This document shows, piece after piece, positions 12,751 to 26,077 of a DNA stretch of 34,124 bases. Made by a program: the position numbers and the translations under genes. Origin of the DNA: Gammaproteobacteria bacterium (GTDB lineage Bacteria > Pseudomonadota > Gammaproteobacteria > GCF-002020875); NCBI GenBank assembly GCA_018648825.1, contig JABGQL010000096.1, positions 19,515-53,638 on the forward strand. Reading direction: 5' to 3'. The first letter of the stretch is position 1, and each line of letters opens with the position of its first letter. The notes beneath the pieces were generated by a model, which searched no databases, was not told where the DNA came from, and saw nothing but the letters and a program-made list of their open reading frames with translations.

Positions 12751-13938
12751 GTGCACATTGAATCGATTCAATTAGAAAACTTTAAAAGCTTCCGTAAGGC
12801 ACAGATGTTGGATATTCCAAAATTCTGCGTCATTGTGGGGGCCAATGGTAGCGGAAAGTCCACGCTATTTAGTGTGTTTGAGTTTCTTCGTGAAGCCTTA
12901 GATAGCAATGTACATACCGCCTTAGTCAAACTGGGTGGCAGTCGGGGATTTCAAGAGGTTCGTAGCCGGGGTGCGACGGGAAATATTGAGATTGAAATCA
13001 AATTCCGTGAAACGGAAAATGCGCCTTTGGTAACCTATTATCTTGAAGTGGGGGAGGCCAATGGTCGTCCTATCGTCGCGCGAGAAATTTTGAAGTACCG
13101 ACGAGGCAGTGGAGGCAAACCATGGCATTTCCTAGATTTTTCTAATGGAGAGGGTGAAGCGGTCACCAATGAAATTGAAAACGTGACCGATGTCTCCGAG
13201 CTGCAACGTGAAAGTCAAAAGTTAAAATCACCTGAGATTTTGGCGGTTAAAGGGCTGGCACAGTTTGAACGTTTCCCAGCTGTGGTGGCTTTAGGGAACC
13301 TGATTGAGAACTGGCATATTTCCGACTTCCATATCAGTCGTGCCAGACCAGAACAGGAGGCGGGCTATGCAGAACACCTATCAAGAGAGGGAGAGAATCT
13401 GTCCCTAGTTACAGAATATCTCCATACGCGCCACCCAGAATCTTTTCAGACGATTTTGCAAAAGTTAACGGAGCGAGTGCCGGGCATTACTTCGGTGAAT
13501 GCGAAGACGACTGAAGAGGGGCGAGTGCTATTACGCTTTCAGGATGGAGCCTTTGAAGACCCGTTCCTTGCGCGTTATGTTTCTGATGGAACCATTAAGA
13601 TGTTTGCTTATCTGGTGCTGTTATACGATACAGAGCCACACCCTCTGCTCTGTGTTGAGGAGCCAGAGAACCAACTCTACCCAGAGCTACTGTGGGAGCT
13701 TGCTGAAGAGTTTCGTTCCTATGCCGAAAGAGGAGGACAAGTTTTTGTCTCCAGCCATTCGCCAGACTTTCTCAATGCTGTACGGATCGATGAAGTGTAT
13801 TGGATGGTTAAGGAGCAGGGTTGCACAACGATCAAACGTGCCCTGGATGACAAACAAATTGCTGCCTTTATGGCTGAAGGAGATCAGATGGGTTATCTCT
13901 GGAAAGAGGGCTTTTTCCAGGGTGCAGGCCTCAGATAA
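12751..13938 (+). CDS. AAA (AAA_21/RecF-like) ATPase, defence-type
   Basis: A 395-residue SMC/RecF-like ATPase. It starts with the ABC-type IESIQLENFKSF strand, with Walker A GANGSGKST (residues 30-38), Walker B ending in the Glu pair at 303-304 (LLCVEEPENQLYPE) and the H-loop VSSHSPDFLN (His336). These features match AAA ATPases of OLD, PARIS AriA and related phage-defence pairs. The GTG start is supported by AAGGAG seven bases upstream. Its stop overlaps the start of the TOPRIM-like gene (TAATG), so the two are coupled. The ATPase likely senses a trigger and controls its partner. No nuclease domain is attached. Confidence 0.88.
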   Translation: MHIESIQLENFKSFRKAQMLDIPKFCVIVGANGSGKSTLFSVFEFLREALDSNVHTALVKLGGSRGFQEVRSRGATGNIEIEIKFRETENAPLVTYYLEVGEANGRPIVAREILKYRRGSGGKPWHFLDFSNGEGEAVTNEIENVTDVSELQRESQKLKSPEILAVKGLAQFERFPAVVALGNLIENWHISDFHISRARPEQEAGYAEHLSREGENLSLVTEYLHTRHPESFQTILQKLTERVPGITSVNAKTTEEGRVLLRFQDGAFEDPFLARYVSDGTIKMFAYLVLLYDTEPHPLLCVEEPENQLYPELLWELAEEFRSYAERGGQVFVSSHSPDFLNAVRIDEVYWMVKEQGCTTIKRALDDKQIAAFMAEGDQMGYLWKEGFFQGAGLR

Positions 13939-14495
13939 TGCAATTGGTCTTCTTTCTCGAAGAGCCTTCGGCAAAAGCGATGCTACAAGGAGTATTGCCT
14001 AAAATTTTACCAGCGGGTGTTCAGACTCAGTTTGTAGTGTTTGACGGTAAGCAAGATTTGGAAAAGCGTCTGCCTCTTCGTTTGAGAGCTTGGCAGCGAC
14101 CAGATGCGAAATTCATAGTCATGCGGGACCAAGATAGCGGTAACTGCAAAGAGATTAAAGCGGGATTGGTTCAGAAGTGTCTTAATGCTGGCAAAGAGGA
14201 ACACCTTGTTCGTATTGCTTGTCATGAGTTAGAGAGCTTTTATCTGGGAGATCTGGCTGCTGTGGCTGAGGCAATTGGCCCAAACAGTCTCGCAAGGCAG
14301 CAAAATAGAGCAAAATACCGGGACCCGGATCGATTAGCAAACCCGTCTCAGGAACTTAAAAAAATGGCCCCTTCGTACCAGAAAATGTCTGGGTCTCGGG
14401 CTATTGGTTTGGTAATGGATGTTGAGGGCAATCGCTCTTACAGCTTTAATATGTTGCTGAGTGGTGTAAAGAGGTTAGCGGGTGTAGAGCAATGA
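13938..14495 (+). CDS. DUF4276 family TOPRIM-like protein
   Basis: A 185-residue DUF4276-type protein paired with the upstream ATPase. TOPRIM-like elements are visible: an acidic pair after the first strand (FLEEPS, Glu8/Glu9), a DxD at VMRDQDSG (Asp64/Asp66) and a third acidic cluster in HELESFYLGD (Glu97/Glu99). That arrangement suits a metal-dependent nuclease, as in OLD-family and AriB effectors. Translation is coupled to the ATPase by a one-base overlap. Likely role: effector of a two-gene anti-phage system; the target (DNA or RNA, self or phage) is unknown. No other named family seems a better fit. Confidence 0.82.
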   Translation: MQLVFFLEEPSAKAMLQGVLPKILPAGVQTQFVVFDGKQDLEKRLPLRLRAWQRPDAKFIVMRDQDSGNCKEIKAGLVQKCLNAGKEEHLVRIACHELESFYLGDLAAVAEAIGPNSLARQQNRAKYRDPDRLANPSQELKKMAPSYQKMSGSRAIGLVMDVEGNRSYSFNMLLSGVKRLAGVEQ

Positions 14496-14697: not shown

Positions 14698-16230
14698 GTG
14701 CCGATACTGGATTGGTTGAATAAAGAGGAGGCGGTAAAAGAGAGCGTCCGTGTCCCTTATCGTCTGCTTAAGTCGATAAAAAAGTATAGCTATGGTGATG
14801 CCAATAGCGAAAATATGCTGATTCAAGGGGATAACTTAGAGGCACTCAAGGCGTTGCTGCCACTCTATGCTGGGCAGGTGAAATGTATCTATATTGACCC
14901 CCCTTACAACACCAAATCTGCCTTTGAACACTACGATGACAATCTGGAACACAGTCAGTGGCTGACAATGATGTACCCTCGGCTGGAACTGTTGAGGGAG
15001 TTGTTGGCTGAGGATGGGAGTATTTGGGTTTCGATTGATGATTCTGAAGCGGCTTATCTTAAGGTAATGATGGATGAGATTTTTGGGAGAGACCGTTTTG
15101 TTGCATCAAATGTTTGGCAGAAAAGATATTCGAGAGAGAATAGGGAAGCGATAGGTGATGTTCATGAGTATGTATACGTATATGCTATGAATAAAAAAGT
15201 GTTTAAGAAAAATCGTAATAAAGTTCCACTGAATGAAGAGCAGGGAAAGGTTTATCGCAACCCAAATGACGATCCTAAGGGGAGGTGGAGAACGATTCCT
15301 ATAACTGCTCAAGCAGGCCATGCAACACCAGACCAATTTTATGAAATTGTGAGTCCAAGTGGAAAAGTGCATAAGCCATCCAAAGGGAGGTGCTGGGGGT
15401 TTGCACAAGGAACTTTTGAAAGGCTTAGAAAAGAAGGGCGTATATATTTTGGGAAAGGAGGGAACTCTCAGCCAAACTTAATTAGGTATTTGTCTGAAGT
15501 TGAAGGCATGGTTCCATGGACTTGGTGGCCTAGTATTGAGGTCGGTCACACGGATGAGTCAAAGAAGGAAATATTGGCGCTGTTTCATGATCAAAGTGAG
15601 TTTGATACGCCGAAGCCCGAAAGGTTGATGGAAAGAATTTTTCATATTGCAACTAATCCAGATGATTTGATTTTGGATTCTTTCCTTGGTTCAGGAACTT
15701 CTGCAGCAGTAGCCCAAAAAATGAATCGCCGCTATATCGGTATCGAGATGGGTGAACATGCCACCACCCACTGTCAGCCCCGTCTAAAAAAGGTGGTTGA
15801 TGGAGAACAGGGGGGCATTTCTAAGGCAGTTGAGTGGCAAGGTGGTGGTGGTTTTAACTTTTATCGATTGGGTGAAACGGTATTTGATGAGGAAGGGCGG
15901 ATTAACCCCGCTGTCCGTTTTATAACCCTCGCCTCCCACCTCTGGTTTACCGAAACGGGCCACCCATTACGCTCTGATGGCAAACAGCCATTTTTAGGGC
16001 TTCATCAAGGGGTGGCTTATGCTCTGCTCTATAACGGCATCTTGGGAGATAAAAGCGCCAGTGGTGGAAATGTGCTGACCCGTTCTCTATTCAAGTTGTT
16101 GCGTGAGCAGGCGGGTGGTTTTGAGGGGCCTTGGGTGGTCTATGGGGAGTCGAGCCGCATTACCCTGCCCGGTCTCAAGCGTGAACAGGTCACCTTTAAA
16201 CAGACCCCCTACGATATCAAGGTACGTTAA
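14698..16230 (+). CDS. mod: Type III restriction-modification methyltransferase (Mod)
   Basis: Adenine-N6 DNA methyltransferase of the beta class: the catalytic DPPYN (residues 67-71) precedes the central target-recognition region, and the S-adenosylmethionine-binding FLGSG (329-333) follows. The GTG start gives the typical MPILDWLNKE...VPYRLL N-terminus of Type III Mod proteins; a weak GGGGA lies upstream. At 510 residues it is smaller than EcoP15I Mod. It recognises the site for both methylation and restriction. res follows after two bases. The central part (about 15060-15715) is noticeably more AT-rich and uses AGA and ATA codons more than its flanks, suggesting an exchanged recognition domain. 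Confidence 0.94.
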   Translation: MPILDWLNKEEAVKESVRVPYRLLKSIKKYSYGDANSENMLIQGDNLEALKALLPLYAGQVKCIYIDPPYNTKSAFEHYDDNLEHSQWLTMMYPRLELLRELLAEDGSIWVSIDDSEAAYLKVMMDEIFGRDRFVASNVWQKRYSRENREAIGDVHEYVYVYAMNKKVFKKNRNKVPLNEEQGKVYRNPNDDPKGRWRTIPITAQAGHATPDQFYEIVSPSGKVHKPSKGRCWGFAQGTFERLRKEGRIYFGKGGNSQPNLIRYLSEVEGMVPWTWWPSIEVGHTDESKKEILALFHDQSEFDTPKPERLMERIFHIATNPDDLILDSFLGSGTSAAVAQKMNRRYIGIEMGEHATTHCQPRLKKVVDGEQGGISKAVEWQGGGGFNFYRLGETVFDEEGRINPAVRFITLASHLWFTETGHPLRSDGKQPFLGLHQGVAYALLYNGILGDKSASGGNVLTRSLFKLLREQAGGFEGPWVVYGESSRITLPGLKREQVTFKQTPYDIKVR

Positions 16231-16232
16231 TA

Positions 16233-18968
16233 ATGGAATTAAAACCGTATCAACAGAAGGCATTGGAGGCGTTAGGCCAGTTTCTGGAGCTGTGTCGTGA
16301 GGGGACTTCACCTGATGTTAGCTTTAATCTGGTGACCCAGTCGCTGGAGCTGGGGCAATATCAGAGCCGGTACAAAGTGCTAAAGGGGATGGAGTCAGTC
16401 CCTTACTGCTGTGTGCGGATTCCAACGGGAGGCGGAAAAACCATTCTCGGAGCACATGCAGTCAAGCTTGCTTCAGATAATTACTTGGAGTGTGATTTTC
16501 CTGTGGTGCTCTGGCTGGTTCCCTCCAATACCATTCGCTTGCAGACAGTGGATGCCCTGAAGAATTTGCAGCACCCTTATCGACAGGTGTTGGATGATGC
16601 CTTTGAGGGGCGGGTACGGGTGGTTGATATTGCTGATTTCGAGTTGCTCCGCCCAGCAGATATTGCGCAATCTGCCTGTGTTATTGTGGGTACCATTCAG
16701 ACCTTGCGTGTGACCAATACCGATGGGCGCAAGGTGTATGCACATAATGAGAATTTGGAGCCTCACTTCATACGGATGAGTAGTGCTGAACAGATGGGAA
16801 TGGAAGAGGCTGAGACTGGTCAGGTTAAATTCTCTTTGGCAAACCTACTTCACTACCACCAGCCTCTGTTAATTGTGGATGAGGCTCACAATGCGGTGAC
16901 GGGGTTGAGCGTAGAGATGCAGCAGCGCATTAATCCGGCAGCGATTGTTGAATTTACTGCTACACCAAAGGCGCGTAATAATGTCCTCTTCAGTGTCTCC
17001 GCTACCGAGTTGAAAGAGGCAGAGATGATCAAACTGCCTGTGGTGTTAACGGCGCATAGTAGTTGGCAGGCAGCAGTGTCCGGTGCGTTGGCAGAGCGTA
17101 CTTATCTCGTAGAGAGGGCGAGTAATGAGCCTGAATATATTCGGCCATTGGTGCTGTTTCAGGCGCAAAACAAGGATCAGGAGGTTCATGCAGAGGTGCT
17201 GCGAAAACATCTGATTGAGAATGAGCAGATTGATAAAACACGGGTTGCGGTGGTTACCGGAGATCAACGTGAGTTAGATGGGCTGAATCTATTTGACCCC
17301 AAATGCCCAGTTGAGGTTGTCATTACCGTACAGGCGTTGAAGGAGGGGTGGGACTGCTCCTTTGCGTATGTGTTCTGTTCCTTGGCTAATATTCAGTCAA
17401 AGACCGATGTGGAGCAGTTGTTGGGGCGTGTACTGCGTATGCCCTATGCACGAAAACGACAGCAGCCGGATCTTAATCGTGCCTATGCACACTTGTGTGA
17501 GCCTAATTTTATCAGTGCGGCAGATAACCTGAGAGATCGGTTGATTGATATGGGGTTTGCCAATGAGGAGGCAGAGGATAATATTGAGATCAACTCGCTA
17601 CCGCTGGAAGGTGGAGGAGATACTGCTGAGGATGAGCTGCTATTGGTATCGATTACATTAGAGGAAGAGGGTGTAATTTCTGTTTTGCCGAACTCGTTGA
17701 GTGATGTGGTGACCATTGAACATAAGGGAGAGGGTGCAGCGGTTATTGAGGTAGCAACCCCTCTGGATGAAGGGCAGCAGAAGACATTGGTTGCACTACT
17801 TCCGAAGGCAGAACAGGAGCGTGCGAACCACCAGCTGAATTTACAGCGCTACCAGTTAGAGAAGCGGAAATCACCAGCGATGCGGGGGCTATCTTTTGCT
17901 GTTCCCCAGCTTTGCCTTTCTGTACAGGGAGAGTTGGAGCTGGCAGAACCGGAGCTGTTCAGTTATCTCGGAGGGTGGAGTCTAAATGACTACCCTGCGA
18001 TATTAAATGCCGCTGAATTCAGTGCGGATGAACGTAGTGAGCGTTTTGCGCTGGATGTGGATGATGGTGCGGTCACCAGTAGGTATATTGCGGAAACAAA
18101 ACAGCAGTATCAACTGCGGGGGCTGGATACCGCTTGGGATGAGAAGGTATTGGCCCGTTTTCTGGATAGACAGTGTCGCCAACCCGATATCGGTCAGCCT
18201 CAATTGTTGGAGTTCTTACGTCAGATTATTGAGCAGCAGCGCAGTAGTGGCCTCTCTCTGGAAAGGTTGGTGTTGGGCAAATACCGCCTCGCCAAGGCGG
18301 TTAAGCGGAAAATTGCCAGCTATCGGTTGCAGGCAGAGAGTGAGAACTATCAGCACTACCTATTTGAGCAGGATGATGGAGTTAATGTAGAGGTGGAGTT
18401 TGACTATGGTTTCCAATTTTTGGCAAACCACTATCCAGCCAATAGCTACTATCGCGGCACACACCAGTTTAATAAGCACTATTATGGCACGCAGCGAGTG
18501 GGTGACTTGAAGAGCAAGGGGGAGGAGTTCGAGTGCGCACGAGCTATTGATATGCATGGCGAGGTGGCGTATTGGGTGCGTAATCTGGAGCGCAAGGGAG
18601 AGGCCTCCTTTCGATTGCCGTTGGCACATGGCTGGTTTTATCCTGATTTTGTGGTGCAGCTGCAAGATGGCAGAGTCGCTGTAATTGAGTATAAAGGGAA
18701 GCATCTGGAGGCGTTGGACGATACCAAAGAGAAGGAGCAGATTGGTCAGTTGTGGGGCGCGAAGAGCCAGGGTAGAGGACTTTTTTTGATGGCATTGAAG
18801 CTGGATGAGGTGGGAAGAACGTTGTATCAACAGTTGGATGAGCTGTTTAGTACAGCGCTTAGTACAGAAACTGAAGATGCCTTGGAAGATTATGAGTTAG
18901 GTTTGATTGTGAAGCGGCGTCAGAGCCAGAAAGCGGATGCAATAGAAGTCAATATTGATGACCTATAA
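16233..18968 (+). CDS. res: Type III restriction enzyme subunit (Res) with RelB-like C-terminal tail
   Basis: A 911-residue ATP-dependent restriction subunit. Superfamily 2 helicase motifs are intact: PTGGGKT (64-70), DEAH (216-219), FTATPK (241-246), QALKEGWDCS and QLLGRVLRMP. A PD-(D/E)xK nuclease follows: YPDF (Asp805) and VIEYKGK (Glu819, Lys821). With Mod it cleaves unmodified DNA. The nuclease ends near residue 870. The remaining ~33 residues (ETEDALEDYELG through VNIDDL) resemble the toxin-binding C-terminus of RelB-type antitoxins, and the gene overlaps a relE-like gene by 11 bases. The frame is uninterrupted, so the enzyme appears functional. The tail assignment is a similarity judgement by eye. 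Confidence 0.93.
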   Translation: MELKPYQQKALEALGQFLELCREGTSPDVSFNLVTQSLELGQYQSRYKVLKGMESVPYCCVRIPTGGGKTILGAHAVKLASDNYLECDFPVVLWLVPSNTIRLQTVDALKNLQHPYRQVLDDAFEGRVRVVDIADFELLRPADIAQSACVIVGTIQTLRVTNTDGRKVYAHNENLEPHFIRMSSAEQMGMEEAETGQVKFSLANLLHYHQPLLIVDEAHNAVTGLSVEMQQRINPAAIVEFTATPKARNNVLFSVSATELKEAEMIKLPVVLTAHSSWQAAVSGALAERTYLVERASNEPEYIRPLVLFQAQNKDQEVHAEVLRKHLIENEQIDKTRVAVVTGDQRELDGLNLFDPKCPVEVVITVQALKEGWDCSFAYVFCSLANIQSKTDVEQLLGRVLRMPYARKRQQPDLNRAYAHLCEPNFISAADNLRDRLIDMGFANEEAEDNIEINSLPLEGGGDTAEDELLLVSITLEEEGVISVLPNSLSDVVTIEHKGEGAAVIEVATPLDEGQQKTLVALLPKAEQERANHQLNLQRYQLEKRKSPAMRGLSFAVPQLCLSVQGELELAEPELFSYLGGWSLNDYPAILNAAEFSADERSERFALDVDDGAVTSRYIAETKQQYQLRGLDTAWDEKVLARFLDRQCRQPDIGQPQLLEFLRQIIEQQRSSGLSLERLVLGKYRLAKAVKRKIASYRLQAESENYQHYLFEQDDGVNVEVEFDYGFQFLANHYPANSYYRGTHQFNKHYYGTQRVGDLKSKGEEFECARAIDMHGEVAYWVRNLERKGEASFRLPLAHGWFYPDFVVQLQDGRVAVIEYKGKHLEALDDTKEKEQIGQLWGAKSQGRGLFLMALKLDEVGRTLYQQLDELFSTALSTETEDALEDYELGLIVKRRQSQKADAIEVNIDDL

Positions 18969-19242
18969 ACTGAAGTTTCTACCAGCAGCTCTCAAGGAGT
19001 GGAAGAAGCTGGATGCATCTATTCGTAATCAGTTTCAGAAGAAGCTGAAAGAGCGGTTAAAATCTCCCAAGGTGTTGTCAGCACAGTTGAGTGGTTTTGA
19101 AAGTGCTTATAAAATTAAGTTACGTTCATCGGGTTATCGCTTGGCTTATGAGGTGATTGATAATGACGTTGTAGTGATGGTGCTAGCTGTGGGTAAACGT
19201 GATCGCCTTGAGGTATACGAAAATGCTAAGTCACGGAAGTAA
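18958..19242 (+). CDS. RelE/ParE-family toxin without separate antitoxin gene
   Basis: A 94-residue RelE-like toxin, full-length for the family. Diagnostic segments are KLKFLPAALKEWKKLD, YKIKLRSSGYRLAYEV and VVVMVLAVGKRDRLEVYE, closely matching E. coli RelE (same spacing of the Lys/Arg residues and the C-terminal Tyr). RelE cleaves mRNA in the ribosomal A site. I start at the ATG at 18958; a TTG three bases earlier is less likely. It overlaps the end of res by 11 bases, the same kind of overlap normally seen between relB and relE. No relB gene is present; Res supplies an antitoxin-like tail. Confidence 0.92.
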   Translation: MTYKLKFLPAALKEWKKLDASIRNQFQKKLKERLKSPKVLSAQLSGFESAYKIKLRSSGYRLAYEVIDNDVVVMVLAVGKRDRLEVYENAKSRK

Positions 19243-19323
19243 ACCAAGGGCTGAAAAATCCCCTCTCATCCTGTAAAGTTCCCCCTTTGAAACGAAACCA
19301 TTCCCAGATAAAAAGGAAGTGTT

Positions 19324-22579: not shown

Positions 22580-25500
22580 TTAAGTGTTTTTGGTAGCCTC
22601 TATAGAAGCAGCCCACTGCTTCATCACTCCATAATTACGCTTCCCACTACCGAGTAATGGAATCTCCTCTATCGGCTCCAGCCGTGCGGGGACCATCAAT
22701 GGCGAGAGGTTAGAGCTACGAATCTGTTGTGCCAGTGCGGTTTTCTCAATCTCGCTACAGTAGAACAGGGTGATCTGTTCCCCCTTACGCAGGTCGGGGC
22801 TGGCTACAGCCGCGACCTCTATCTCACTCTCCAGCAGAGCGCGGATCTGCTCCTCTACCGCAGTCAGACTCACCATCTCCCCCCCCACCTTGGCAAAGCG
22901 GGCGTAACGGTCAACAATGGTGAGAAAGCCCTCGGCATCGACGTGCCCTTTATCACCACTGCTGTACCAGCTGACCCCATCTTGTTTAATCAATGGCTGT
23001 GAGCAGGGCTGTTGTGGGCAGAGGTAGCCGCTCATTTGCTGCACCCCAGCCATAAGAATTAACCCATCCTCCCCCTCTGGTAGTGGTTGCAGACTCTCTC
23101 TATCCACAATGCGCAGTAGGGTGCCGGGGAGTGGACGACCAACGCTGCCGATACGGTTTCCCTGTTGGCTCATTGGGCTCATACCACAATCGGCAAGTGG
23201 TTCGTCGGGGATGTTGACGCTGACTGCGGGACTCATTTCGGTAGCCCCATACCCCTCGTAGATGATCTTTCCAAACTTTGACTCAAAGGCTTCGCGTACC
23301 GCTAACTTGAGCGGTTCTGCACCAGAGACCACGATGCGCATCGAATCCAGTTGATGAGGTTGAACCTTGTGGTTGCGGCTCATCCACTGCAGAAAAGTGG
23401 GGGTTCCAACGTAGAGTGTTGCCTGGTGCTTTTCAATCGCATTGACCACGCTCATGGTGTCGGTGGGGTCGGGGGCGGTGACCAGGGGGATGCCCTCCAG
23501 CAGAGGCATTAGGGTGGTGGCGGTCAGGCCGAAGGAGTGAAACAGTGGTAGGCTGCCGAGCATGATGTCGTGTGCCTTGGGGTGCAGTCGTGGCTGCAAC
23601 ATCTGCATAATCTGTTGGATGTTTCCCATCAGATTGCGATGTGAGAGGGGGATCCCTTTGGGGTTCCCTTCACTGCCGCTGGAGAAGAGAATAGCCGCCT
23701 CCTGCTCCAGCGTAGAGGGGTGTGTGGTCAAGCGGGAGAGCAGTGGGGTAGGGAGCAGGGCCACCATCAATGCGGTGTAGATACGCTCCAGAGTAGAGAT
23801 CTCCTCTTTGATCGACTCTAGGTTCACCACCTTCACGGCTGCCAGAGCGGGCTCCATCGACTTGCCCTTCTCTTTGAGCTTTTGTAAAAAGCGGGCTGAG
23901 GTGTAGACGGTATCGATCTCAGAGAGTGCAATGGCATCAGCAATCGCCTCTGTAGAGGCGCTGTAGTTGAGGTTGACCACACAGCGCCCACGCATCAAGA
24001 TCGCAAGATTGGTGATGACACCCGCCGCCGTGGTCGGGAGTAGCAGACCAATACGGGCATTGTCGCTCTGCCTTTCAATGCGACGTGCAATCAGGGTGGT
24101 GGCGATCAGTAGCTTGATCCCGCTGAAACGGTCTCCCGTCACCAGATCAGTCAGTGCGTTGCGCAGCCCCATCTGCTTAGCCTGTGTGACCCACGCCTGC
24201 TGTAGACAAGGGTAGTGAACGCTCTCCTGCTGCCATGCGCGTAGTGAGAGCTGCTCCACCCGCTGTTGTGCCTCTCTCGCCGTGAGGGTCTCTGGCTGTG
24301 GTGCGTCAAAGGCAATATGTACCAATCGTTTAGGGAGGCGATAGAGAGAGAGGGGGCGCCTGCTGGGTACCGCACGTGAGAAGCGGCTGCCCCAGAGGCC
24401 ATGGATATAGAAGGGGATGATGGGGGCTCCAGTACCGGAAACCGCCTTCTCAAAACCGCGGCGGAAGGGGCGCAGTTGCCCATTATGGCTGATGGCCCCT
24501 TCAGGAAAGAGGCAGACCAGCTCCCCTGCATTGAGCTGTTGTCGCACCCGCTGTAGTGCACTGCGGCTGTGTCGATTAGAGATCGGAATGACCCCCACCA
24601 GATCAAGAAAGGGGCGCAGCCAGCGCTGCTGGTAGAGTGCCTGCTCCATTACAAAACGGATCGGGCGTGGTGAGACAATTTGCAGCATTGCCCAGTCGAT
24701 CCAGCTGATGTGGTTACCCAGCAGTAGAGCGCCGCCCTCGGTGGGTACCTGCTCCAGTCCATCCACATGGATCTGATAACGGCGGCGAAACAGTAGACGA
24801 ACCAACAGCCGAATCAGCGACTGTGGCATCTTCCACAACGCAACCACGGTTGAGACTCCTGCGATCAGCGCAATGGTATAGAACAGCAGTGTTGGGTCGA
24901 TGGGTGTTGTACGCTCTAGCAGGGCGACTCCCATGGTGGCAGCGAGGAAGCTGAGCATGGTGACGTTCTGCATCCAGTTATTTCCCGCAAGTACACGCCC
25001 CAGCTGTTGTGGTGGTGCGTGGTACTGAATCAGTGCGTTGAGAGGGGCCAACAGTAGACCACCGAAGAGGCCTGACAGCAGGAATAGCAGAGAGAGGGTG
25101 GTTACAGAGTGAGCAGAGGGGATCAACAGCAGTGCTATGGTGAGACCAATAGCACCGAGTGGAATTAATCCCGTCTCGATCCACCCTCGGGAGATACGTG
25201 CAACCAGTAGTGAGCCCAGCAGAATGCCGGCCCCTGCAGCTGCCAGTATCCCCTGAATCACCACGGTGTTGGTCACCCCCAGCTCAGCCTTGGCGAAGGC
25301 GGGAAAGGCGGCGATCGAGACTTGAGAGATGCCCCAGAAGAGAGAGAGCCCAAGGATTGAGTAGGGGATTGTTGGGTGGCTACGCAACAGCTCCCAAGTG
25401 GAGCGTCGGGGCTCGCTGGGAGTGGGAAGTGGTGCCTGAGCGGGCTCCCCCTGTTCCGGTGTGTCGGGCAGATAACCGGCCAACCACCACTCGGCTACAG

Positions 25501-26077
25501 CAAGCAGGGTCAGCAGCCAGCCCAACGGCGCAACCAGCTGAATGACCGCCTCGGGAGTTTCGGGTGTGCCACCTGCGTAGAGCCACTCAAATAGCAGTGA
25601 GAAGAGAAACATACCCGATAGAATGGCGATGATGGTGACAGCCTGTACCCAGCCGTTGGCGCGGGTCAGTTGAGAGAGGTTCACCTGCTCGCGTAGATAC
25701 CCGTACTTGGCGGGGGAGAAGAAGGCACTCTGAATGGCCAACAGCAGTGTGAGTGCAAAGGCGATCTCAAACCACCCTTGGTAGTAGCTTAGGGTGACCA
25801 ATAGTGCGACAGCAACGGCAACCGCTGCGGAGTGGCGCATGACCATGCGTTTGGCGAAGCGGTCTGAGATTTTTCCTGCTGGGACCACCAGCAGAATAAA
25901 GGGGATTAAGATCAGCGCATTGACCAGAGCGGTCAGTAGGATCTGTGTCTCGCCGCTCTCCATTTTGAATACGCTATTCTGAATGGTGATTTTGTGGCCG
26001 AGATCGACAAAGGCGTTGAGAAACAGCACCAGTAGATAGATGCTTAGCCCGCGTAATTTTCCTTCGTGCTGTTCCAT
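22580..26077 (-). CDS. aas: LplT-Aas fusion: lysophospholipid transporter / acyltransferase / acyl-ACP synthetase
   Basis: A single 1165-residue protein with three domains. Residues 1 to ~420 are an MFS transporter resembling LplT, which flips lysophospholipids inward. Around residue 450 is a PlsC acyltransferase (GNHISWIDW, the NHx4D motif, and FPEGAIS). From ~700 onward is an AMP-forming acyl-ACP synthetase (LFSSGSEGNPKG near 796, YGATE near 941, YSSGDKGHVDAEGFL). In E. coli these are LplT and Aas, which recycle lysophosphatidylethanolamine. Fusion puts uptake and reacylation in one inner-membrane protein. The upstream Shine-Dalgarno is weak (CGGAT). The gene is convergent with trpE and divergent from the TauE gene. 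Confidence 0.93.
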   Translation of the reverse strand: MEQHEGKLRGLSIYLLVLFLNAFVDLGHKITIQNSVFKMESGETQILLTALVNALILIPFILLVVPAGKISDRFAKRMVMRHSAAVAVAVALLVTLSYYQGWFEIAFALTLLLAIQSAFFSPAKYGYLREQVNLSQLTRANGWVQAVTIIAILSGMFLFSLLFEWLYAGGTPETPEAVIQLVAPLGWLLTLLAVAEWWLAGYLPDTPEQGEPAQAPLPTPSEPRRSTWELLRSHPTIPYSILGLSLFWGISQVSIAAFPAFAKAELGVTNTVVIQGILAAAGAGILLGSLLVARISRGWIETGLIPLGAIGLTIALLLIPSAHSVTTLSLLFLLSGLFGGLLLAPLNALIQYHAPPQQLGRVLAGNNWMQNVTMLSFLAATMGVALLERTTPIDPTLLFYTIALIAGVSTVVALWKMPQSLIRLLVRLLFRRRYQIHVDGLEQVPTEGGALLLGNHISWIDWAMLQIVSPRPIRFVMEQALYQQRWLRPFLDLVGVIPISNRHSRSALQRVRQQLNAGELVCLFPEGAISHNGQLRPFRRGFEKAVSGTGAPIIPFYIHGLWGSRFSRAVPSRRPLSLYRLPKRLVHIAFDAPQPETLTAREAQQRVEQLSLRAWQQESVHYPCLQQAWVTQAKQMGLRNALTDLVTGDRFSGIKLLIATTLIARRIERQSDNARIGLLLPTTAAGVITNLAILMRGRCVVNLNYSASTEAIADAIALSEIDTVYTSARFLQKLKEKGKSMEPALAAVKVVNLESIKEEISTLERIYTALMVALLPTPLLSRLTTHPSTLEQEAAILFSSGSEGNPKGIPLSHRNLMGNIQQIMQMLQPRLHPKAHDIMLGSLPLFHSFGLTATTLMPLLEGIPLVTAPDPTDTMSVVNAIEKHQATLYVGTPTFLQWMSRNHKVQPHQLDSMRIVVSGAEPLKLAVREAFESKFGKIIYEGYGATEMSPAVSVNIPDEPLADCGMSPMSQQGNRIGSVGRPLPGTLLRIVDRESLQPLPEGEDGLILMAGVQQMSGYLCPQQPCSQPLIKQDGVSWYSSGDKGHVDAEGFLTIVDRYARFAKVGGEMVSLTAVEEQIRALLESEIEVAAVASPDLRKGEQITLFYCSEIEKTALAQQIRSSNLSPLMVPARLEPIEEIPLLGSGKRNYGVMKQWAASIEATKNT

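What the first reader, a model, noticed from the sequence alone, without database searches (positions are those of the whole stretch)
18840..19242. Antitoxin-like tail fused to the Type III Res subunit, overlapping an orphan RelE gene
Seen directly: Res continues ~33 residues past its PD-(D/E)xK nuclease, from residue ~879 to 911, and relE begins 11 bases before the res stop. The tail (EDYELGLIVKRR, then VNIDDL at the very end) resembles by eye the C-terminal toxin-wrapping region of RelB (for E. coli RelB, VKERLRNP ... VTLDEL). Known: RelB neutralises RelE through its C-terminal half, and relB normally overlaps relE in just this way. Inference: the restriction enzyme itself may carry the antitoxin function, so loss or inactivation of Res would free the toxin. 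This would link restriction to an addiction or abortive-infection module. It would be a fusion of the RelB tail without the DNA-binding half.
Basis: partly seen in the sequence, partly recalled or inferred. Interest (0 to 1): 0.82.

Follow-up and report, generated by a model that had tools for sequence, protein, structure and literature searches.

The report
Restriction enzyme carrying a RelE-antitoxin tail
In one uncultured bacterium a DNA-cutting defence enzyme ends in the toxin-binding tail of an antitoxin, right in front of the matching RelE toxin gene, whose own antitoxin gene is missing; the defence enzyme therefore probably keeps the toxin silent itself, an arrangement I found nowhere else.

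Summary
The type III Res protein (16233-18968) runs 90 residues past its catalytic ExK lysine; 24 aligned relatives run 51-56. Its last 30 residues (882-911) match a profile of antitoxin C-termini taken from relE operons (41 bits; best of 5000 shuffles 18.7; E = 4e-7 in its whole genome), and are the only such match there. One correction: the donor is a Phd/YefM-type RelE antitoxin, not ribbon-helix-helix RelB. The 11-base overlap with relE is the standard junction of that relBE family (76 of 115 loci). About 100 other Res relatives lack both the tail and a relE relative in the DNA examined. The genome has no other RelE relative and no RelB; its antitoxin-like hits elsewhere lack the RelE-binding tail. 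Tail and RelE diverge together as in intact relBE pairs, so the tail has not decayed. The retained 30 residues equal the RelE-binding segment of E. coli RelB (50-79), with the key Arg and RelE Glu14 both present. Most likely Res acts as RelE's antitoxin, after a fusion that discarded the DNA-binding half. Binding is untested; a guard or abortive-infection role is speculation. One sequence only, from a draft assembly.

The parts
16233..18968 (+). res, type III restriction subunit, 911 aa, with antitoxin tail; helicase motifs (GGGKT, DEAH) and PD-ExK nuclease (PD 804-805, ExK 819-821) intact
   Evidence: PADLOC REase_III E 4e-192 over 2-873; Pfam ResIII; invariant motif columns
18852..18875 (+). 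linker, Res residues 874-881 (TALSTETE), between the native Res end and the antitoxin tail
   Evidence: relatives end at about residue 868-878; profile match begins at 882
18876..18965 (+). antitoxin tail, Res residues 882-911 (DALEDYELGLIVKRRQSQKADAIEVNIDDL)
   Evidence: profile of Phd/YefM-type antitoxin C-termini: 41.3 bits for the tail alone, shuffles at most 18.7; E 3.9e-7 genome-wide with an independent profile
18918..18920 (+). codon of Res Arg896, equivalent to E. coli RelB Arg65, which takes over the contact that RelE Arg93 makes with Glu14
   Evidence: hand alignment; invariant Arg column in 27 antitoxin tails; structure paper PMC3507626
18958..18968 (+). 11-base overlap of relE start and res stop
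   Evidence: sequence; same overlap in 76 of 115 relE loci
18958..19242 (+). relE, RelE-family mRNA interferase gene, 94 aa, Lys52, Lys54, Arg61, Arg81, Tyr87 and Glu14 present
   Evidence: TIGR02385 above cut-off; E. coli RelE structures E 3e-27; conserved columns
14698..16230 (+). mod, type III N6-adenine methyltransferase, 510 aa
   Evidence: PADLOC MTase_III E 2e-189
12751..13938 (+). AAA ATPase of candidate defence system HEC-01, same island
   Evidence: PADLOC HEC-01 E 4e-206
13938..14495 (+). DUF4276 protein, partner gene of HEC-01, same island
   Evidence: PADLOC HEC-01 E 2e-83; Pfam PF14103
12704..19247 (.). inserted defence island that ends right after relE
   Evidence: four same-genus genomes have the left-hand DnaJ-like gene directly before rpe; alignment resumes at 19248

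Best explanation
A relBE operon of the Phd/YefM-antitoxin type was joined in frame to the end of a type III res gene. The event deleted the antitoxin's promoter, start and DNA-binding half but kept its 30-residue RelE-binding segment. The Res protein now carries that segment on a flexible arm and works as the antitoxin: the arm folds onto RelE, displaces its C-terminal helix with the catalytic Tyr87, and holds it inactive. relE has no recognisable ribosome-binding site of its own and starts inside the end of res, so RelE should be made mostly by ribosomes that have just finished a tail. Operator control by the antitoxin is lost; transcription would come from the mod-res operon. Loss of the island would leave RelE unopposed as Res disappears. 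Shown: homology, junction, absence of another detectable RelE or RelB, co-divergence of tail and toxin. Inferred: binding, neutralisation, coupling, and the consequence of losing Res.
For: Tail-profile match far above shuffles, unique in 11,934 frames and in its genome. Same 11-base junction as intact relBE loci. Extra length only in this Res. RelE catalytic residues and Glu14 intact. Only one RelE relative in the genome and no RelB; the Phd/YefM-like hits lack the tail, and the strongest two neighbour PIN-like frames. At matched RelE divergence the tail is as similar to real antitoxins as they are to one another (residual -2.5, sd 5.6, rank 25 of 63). RelE binds RelB residues 50-79 in the crystal (PMC3507626), and a 36-residue RelB C-terminal chain was solved with RelE (2kc8). 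AlphaFold2 puts the tail outside the well-predicted Res core, with low confidence, as expected of a segment that folds on its partner. No promoter-like match upstream of relE within the 3' part of res scanned; no ribosome-binding match before relE.
Against: One sequence, from a draft assembly (168 contigs, 88.5% complete); a solitary antitoxin or second relB could lie in the missing part. A recent neutral fusion would show the same conservation. Normal antitoxins are dimers made in excess, whereas here the tail is held on a large enzyme in roughly equal amount. No complex was modelled and nothing has been tested.
Confidence: 0.7

Rival explanations
1. Frozen accident without wider role. The island recombined with a relBE module at some point. 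Only fusions that kept the RelE-binding tail in frame survived, since any other would free the toxin. The tail neutralises RelE but the link to restriction is meaningless. (This shares the mechanism of the best explanation and differs from it only in denying a benefit, so the two confidences overlap.)
For: No second example among about 100 Res relatives or among 31 antitoxin-tail hits in 369 genomes, where this is the only long frame above the noise. relE is the last gene of the island.
Against: Same-genus genomes have no relBE at this site, so the fusion probably arose before or with arrival of the island and was then kept.
Confidence: 0.5
2. Non-functional remnant: the tail is a decaying leftover, and RelE is harmless because it is not expressed or not active.
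For: Single sequence; relE lacks a ribosome-binding match; RelE position 45 is Ser where E. coli has Arg, although several intact relatives also have Ser.
Against: Tail and RelE both keep their conserved residues and diverge in step as in functional pairs.
Confidence: 0.15
3. A free antitoxin is made by internal translation starts near the end of res (for example Met853, giving a 59-residue peptide), so that full-length Res is not the working antitoxin.
For: In-frame ATG 853 with AGGA 9 bases upstream; other weak starts at 840 and 864.
Against: 86 internal start codons in res, several with equal or better matches; the Met is present in close relatives without a tail, so it is likely structural.
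Confidence: 0.1
4. Assembly chimera that joined res to a relBE fragment from elsewhere.
For: Draft assembly; single occurrence; tail and relE have lower G+C (43 and 42%) than the res body (50%).
Against: Both flanks of the island match the same locus in same-genus genomes, and the join is in frame inside the antitoxin. Low G+C of a 90-base stretch occurs in 5% of res windows.
Confidence: 0.05

Closest known systems
relBE modules with a Phd/YefM-type antitoxin, e.g. Catenovulum adriaticum plasmid pCadTS8_2 (L131)
   Same: RelE 67% identical; antitoxin C-terminus about 50% identical to the Res tail; same 11-base overlap
   Different: There the antitoxin is a separate 83-residue protein with its DNA-binding half; here only the last 30 residues remain, on a restriction enzyme
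E. coli RelBE
   Same: RelE with the same catalytic residues; RelB 50-79 is the RelE-binding segment and aligns with Res 882-911 with one inserted residue
   Different: RelB has a ribbon-helix-helix N-terminal half and represses its own operon
PrrC with type Ic restriction system EcoprrI (PMC3506569, PMC12707154)
   Same: RNase toxin encoded with, and silenced by, a restriction system; works as a back-up when restriction is inhibited
   Different: PrrC is a tRNA anticodon nuclease held by the whole Hsd complex with no antitoxin-derived part that I know of; here the inhibitor would be a recognisable antitoxin peptide in a type III system
Fused toxin-antitoxin genes and ptuXYZ (PMC11980606)
   Same: Fusions involving RelE-superfamily modules; RelE-fold RNase in an operon with a putative nuclease and an ATPase
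   Different: In those fusions the antitoxin is joined to its toxin; no antitoxin tail on a restriction enzyme is described for ptuXYZ

Membership tests
Type II toxin-antitoxin module, RelBE family | RelE-fold toxin with catalytic residues | tested here: met
Type II toxin-antitoxin module, RelBE family | Adjacent antitoxin with a toxin-binding C-terminus overlapping the toxin gene | tested here: met
   (by homology)
Type II toxin-antitoxin module, RelBE family | Antitoxin is a small protein with a DNA-binding N-terminal half | tested here: not met
   No Phd/YefM or RelB domain on this contig; Res takes its place
Type II toxin-antitoxin module, RelBE family | Antitoxin neutralises toxin in the cell | not testable with these tools
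Type III restriction-modification system | Mod N6-adenine methyltransferase plus Res with helicase and PD-ExK nuclease | tested here: met
Type III restriction-modification system | Cuts DNA between two inversely oriented unmodified sites | not testable with these tools
   biochemical property
Restriction guard system (PrrC-like) | RNase released when the restriction enzyme is inhibited | not testable with these tools
   inference only
Restriction guard system (PrrC-like) | PrrC-type ABC-ATPase anticodon nuclease | tested here: not met
   the toxin is a RelE-family protein

The most novel reading that the evidence does not exclude
The restriction enzyme is a guarded sensor: RelE is held on Res, and when a phage inhibits or destroys Res, or the island is lost, RelE is released and stops translation. 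This would be a PrrC-like back-up built from a captured antitoxin peptide in a type III system.
Probability: 0.2. Interest if true: 0.88.

Novelty: new variant of a known kind. Interest (0 to 1): 0.66.

Why it matters
The authors of 'Live virus-free or die' (PMC3506569) noted that immunity loci carry toxins but not the usual antitoxins, and proposed that immunity proteins themselves restrain the toxins; PrrC was their worked example. Here an immunity protein carries a recognisable antitoxin peptide next to the matching toxin, so that idea can be tested with two genes in E. coli. It would also show that the 30-residue toxin-binding segment of an antitoxin can be moved onto an unrelated enzyme and still work.

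Tried and rejected
AlphaFold2 of Res alone gave no information on binding. A direct PDB search with the tail alone found nothing meaningful, too short; Pfam and NCBIfam scans of the last 62 residues likewise found no antitoxin family. Viral-contig scans with single Res and RelE queries found no relatives; the RelE alignment found 80 relE loci, nearly all with an ordinary antitoxin-like gene in front. Literature searches found no report of an antitoxin tail on a restriction enzyme among the open-access papers held. Ribbon-helix-helix RelB as donor was rejected: the closest RelE relatives pair with Phd/YefM-type antitoxins.

Full report
WHAT IS THERE. The window holds a type III restriction-modification operon: mod (14698-16230) and res (16233-18968), preceded by a two-gene candidate defence system that PADLOC calls HEC-01 (12751-14495). 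Directly after res comes relE (18958-19242), whose ATG lies 11 bases before the end of the res stop codon. The RelE protein is close to E. coli RelE (E 3e-27 against solved chains) and keeps Lys52, Lys54, Arg61, Arg81 and Tyr87 (that these are the catalytic residues is partly my own knowledge, Tyr87 is stated in PMC3507626).

THE TAIL IS EXTRA. Res relatives end 51-56 residues after the catalytic ExK lysine in 24 aligned proteins, while this Res continues for 90. In about 100 further loci (genome collections and three plasmid records, a few cut by contig ends) no relative carries the tail, and none has a relative of this RelE in the DNA examined. Plasmid matches listed all stop at residue 873 or before. 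Other, unrelated toxins next to res were not looked for systematically.

THE TAIL IS AN ANTITOXIN C-TERMINUS. I collected relatives of this RelE and read the gene in front of each. The antitoxins nearest to it have the Phd/YefM N-terminal pattern and end in a segment such as DVVDDYELAKVVEDRRRNLSGAIEVNLDDL (Catenovulum) against DALEDYELGLIVKRRQSQKADAIEVNIDDL in Res. A profile of 29 such ends gives the isolated tail 41.3 bits, against 18.7 for the best of 5000 shuffles, and finds nothing but relE-linked antitoxins and Res among 11,934 open frames. A separate profile from 27 antitoxins, without the window, searched over 369 genomes of the class gives 31 hits below E 1e-3; 30 lie in frames of 45-187 residues and one, this Res, in a frame of 922.

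THE JUNCTION IS A relBE JUNCTION. The 11-base overlap occurs in 76 of 115 relE loci read, and the bases around it are much the same (AAGTCAATATTGATGACCTATAAA here, AAGTCAACTTAGATGACTTATAAA in Catenovulum). The simplest history is an in-frame fusion of res with the last third of an antitoxin gene, relE following unchanged.

NO OTHER ANTITOXIN FOUND. The genome has one RelE relative and no RelB domain. Phd/YefM hits lie on other contigs. The two strongest neighbour frames that look like PIN-domain toxins (my reading, not scanned); the third has no clear toxin partner; two weaker ones were not read. None carries the RelE-type tail, since the tail profile found only Res in this genome. The assembly is 88.5% complete, so absence is not proven.

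HAS THE TAIL DECAYED? I compared RelE identity with antitoxin-tail similarity across 63 distinct relBE pairs. At equal RelE divergence the Res tail is as similar to real antitoxin tails as they are to each other: residual -2.5 against a spread of 5.6, rank 25 of 63. The tail has kept pace with the toxin. This fits a working antitoxin, or a fusion too recent to have decayed; one sequence cannot separate the two.

STRUCTURAL LOGIC. In the E. coli complex RelE binds RelB residues 50-79, which displace its C-terminal helix; RelB Arg65 takes the place of RelE Arg93, which otherwise binds Glu14 (PMC3507626). The Res tail is the same length, aligns with that segment with one inserted residue (hand alignment), keeps the Arg (Res 896), and the RelE here keeps Glu14 and Arg93. 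A RelB C-terminal chain of 36 residues was solved bound to RelE (2kc8), so the segment can bind without the DNA-binding half. AlphaFold2 of Res places residues 878-902 in a low-confidence helix outside the confident core. The complex itself could not be modelled: the fused reading needs a one-base step that the tool does not accept.

EXPRESSION. relE has no ribosome-binding match, and no promoter-like match lies in front of it in the 3' part of res (18300 onwards), so it is probably translated by coupling to res. Internal starts in res that could release a free tail peptide exist but are no better than several others.

THE ISLAND. Four same-genus genomes have the DnaJ-like gene directly before rpe; the window has 6.5 kb between them, and similarity resumes at 19248, six bases after relE ends. 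relE is thus the last gene of an acquired defence island. Matching flanks on both sides argue against a chimeric assembly. Tail and relE have similar G+C (43 and 42%), lower than the res body (50%), but a 90-base stretch that low occurs in 5% of res windows, so this is weak evidence.

VERDICT. Neutralisation of RelE by Res is my best explanation (0.7). A benefit beyond keeping the toxin silent, such as guarding restriction, is possible but unsupported (0.2), and the rarity of the fusion allows a frozen accident. What it works like: a RelBE antitoxin and, if the guard reading holds, PrrC with EcoprrI. What it is: not an ordinary RelBE module, since the antitoxin's DNA-binding half is missing.

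Noticed in passing
window 12751-14495: A HEC-01 candidate defence pair (AAA ATPase plus DUF4276) lies in the same inserted island upstream of mod; no relative of either gene was found in the stretches held around the closest Res relatives.
   Followed up: partly
window 19248-19290: A stretch (GGGCTGAAAAATCCCCTCTCATCCTGTAAAGTTCCC) in front of rpe is conserved across same-genus genomes and marks the right edge of the island; possibly a promoter or RNA element.
   Followed up: no
L219, upstream of relE (about 1-1504): The frame in front of relE in this viral contig is 383 residues long and ends in a RelE-antitoxin-like C-terminus; it may be another long fusion or only an upstream open frame.
   Followed up: no
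G253:C92:2104-2181: A 45-residue open frame matches the antitoxin tail in a genome with no RelE match at the threshold used; perhaps a relic.
   Followed up: no
window 22580-26077: One long frame appears to join a transporter-like part, an acyltransferase and an acyl-ligase, as in LplT-Aas fusions (by eye, not searched).
   Followed up: no
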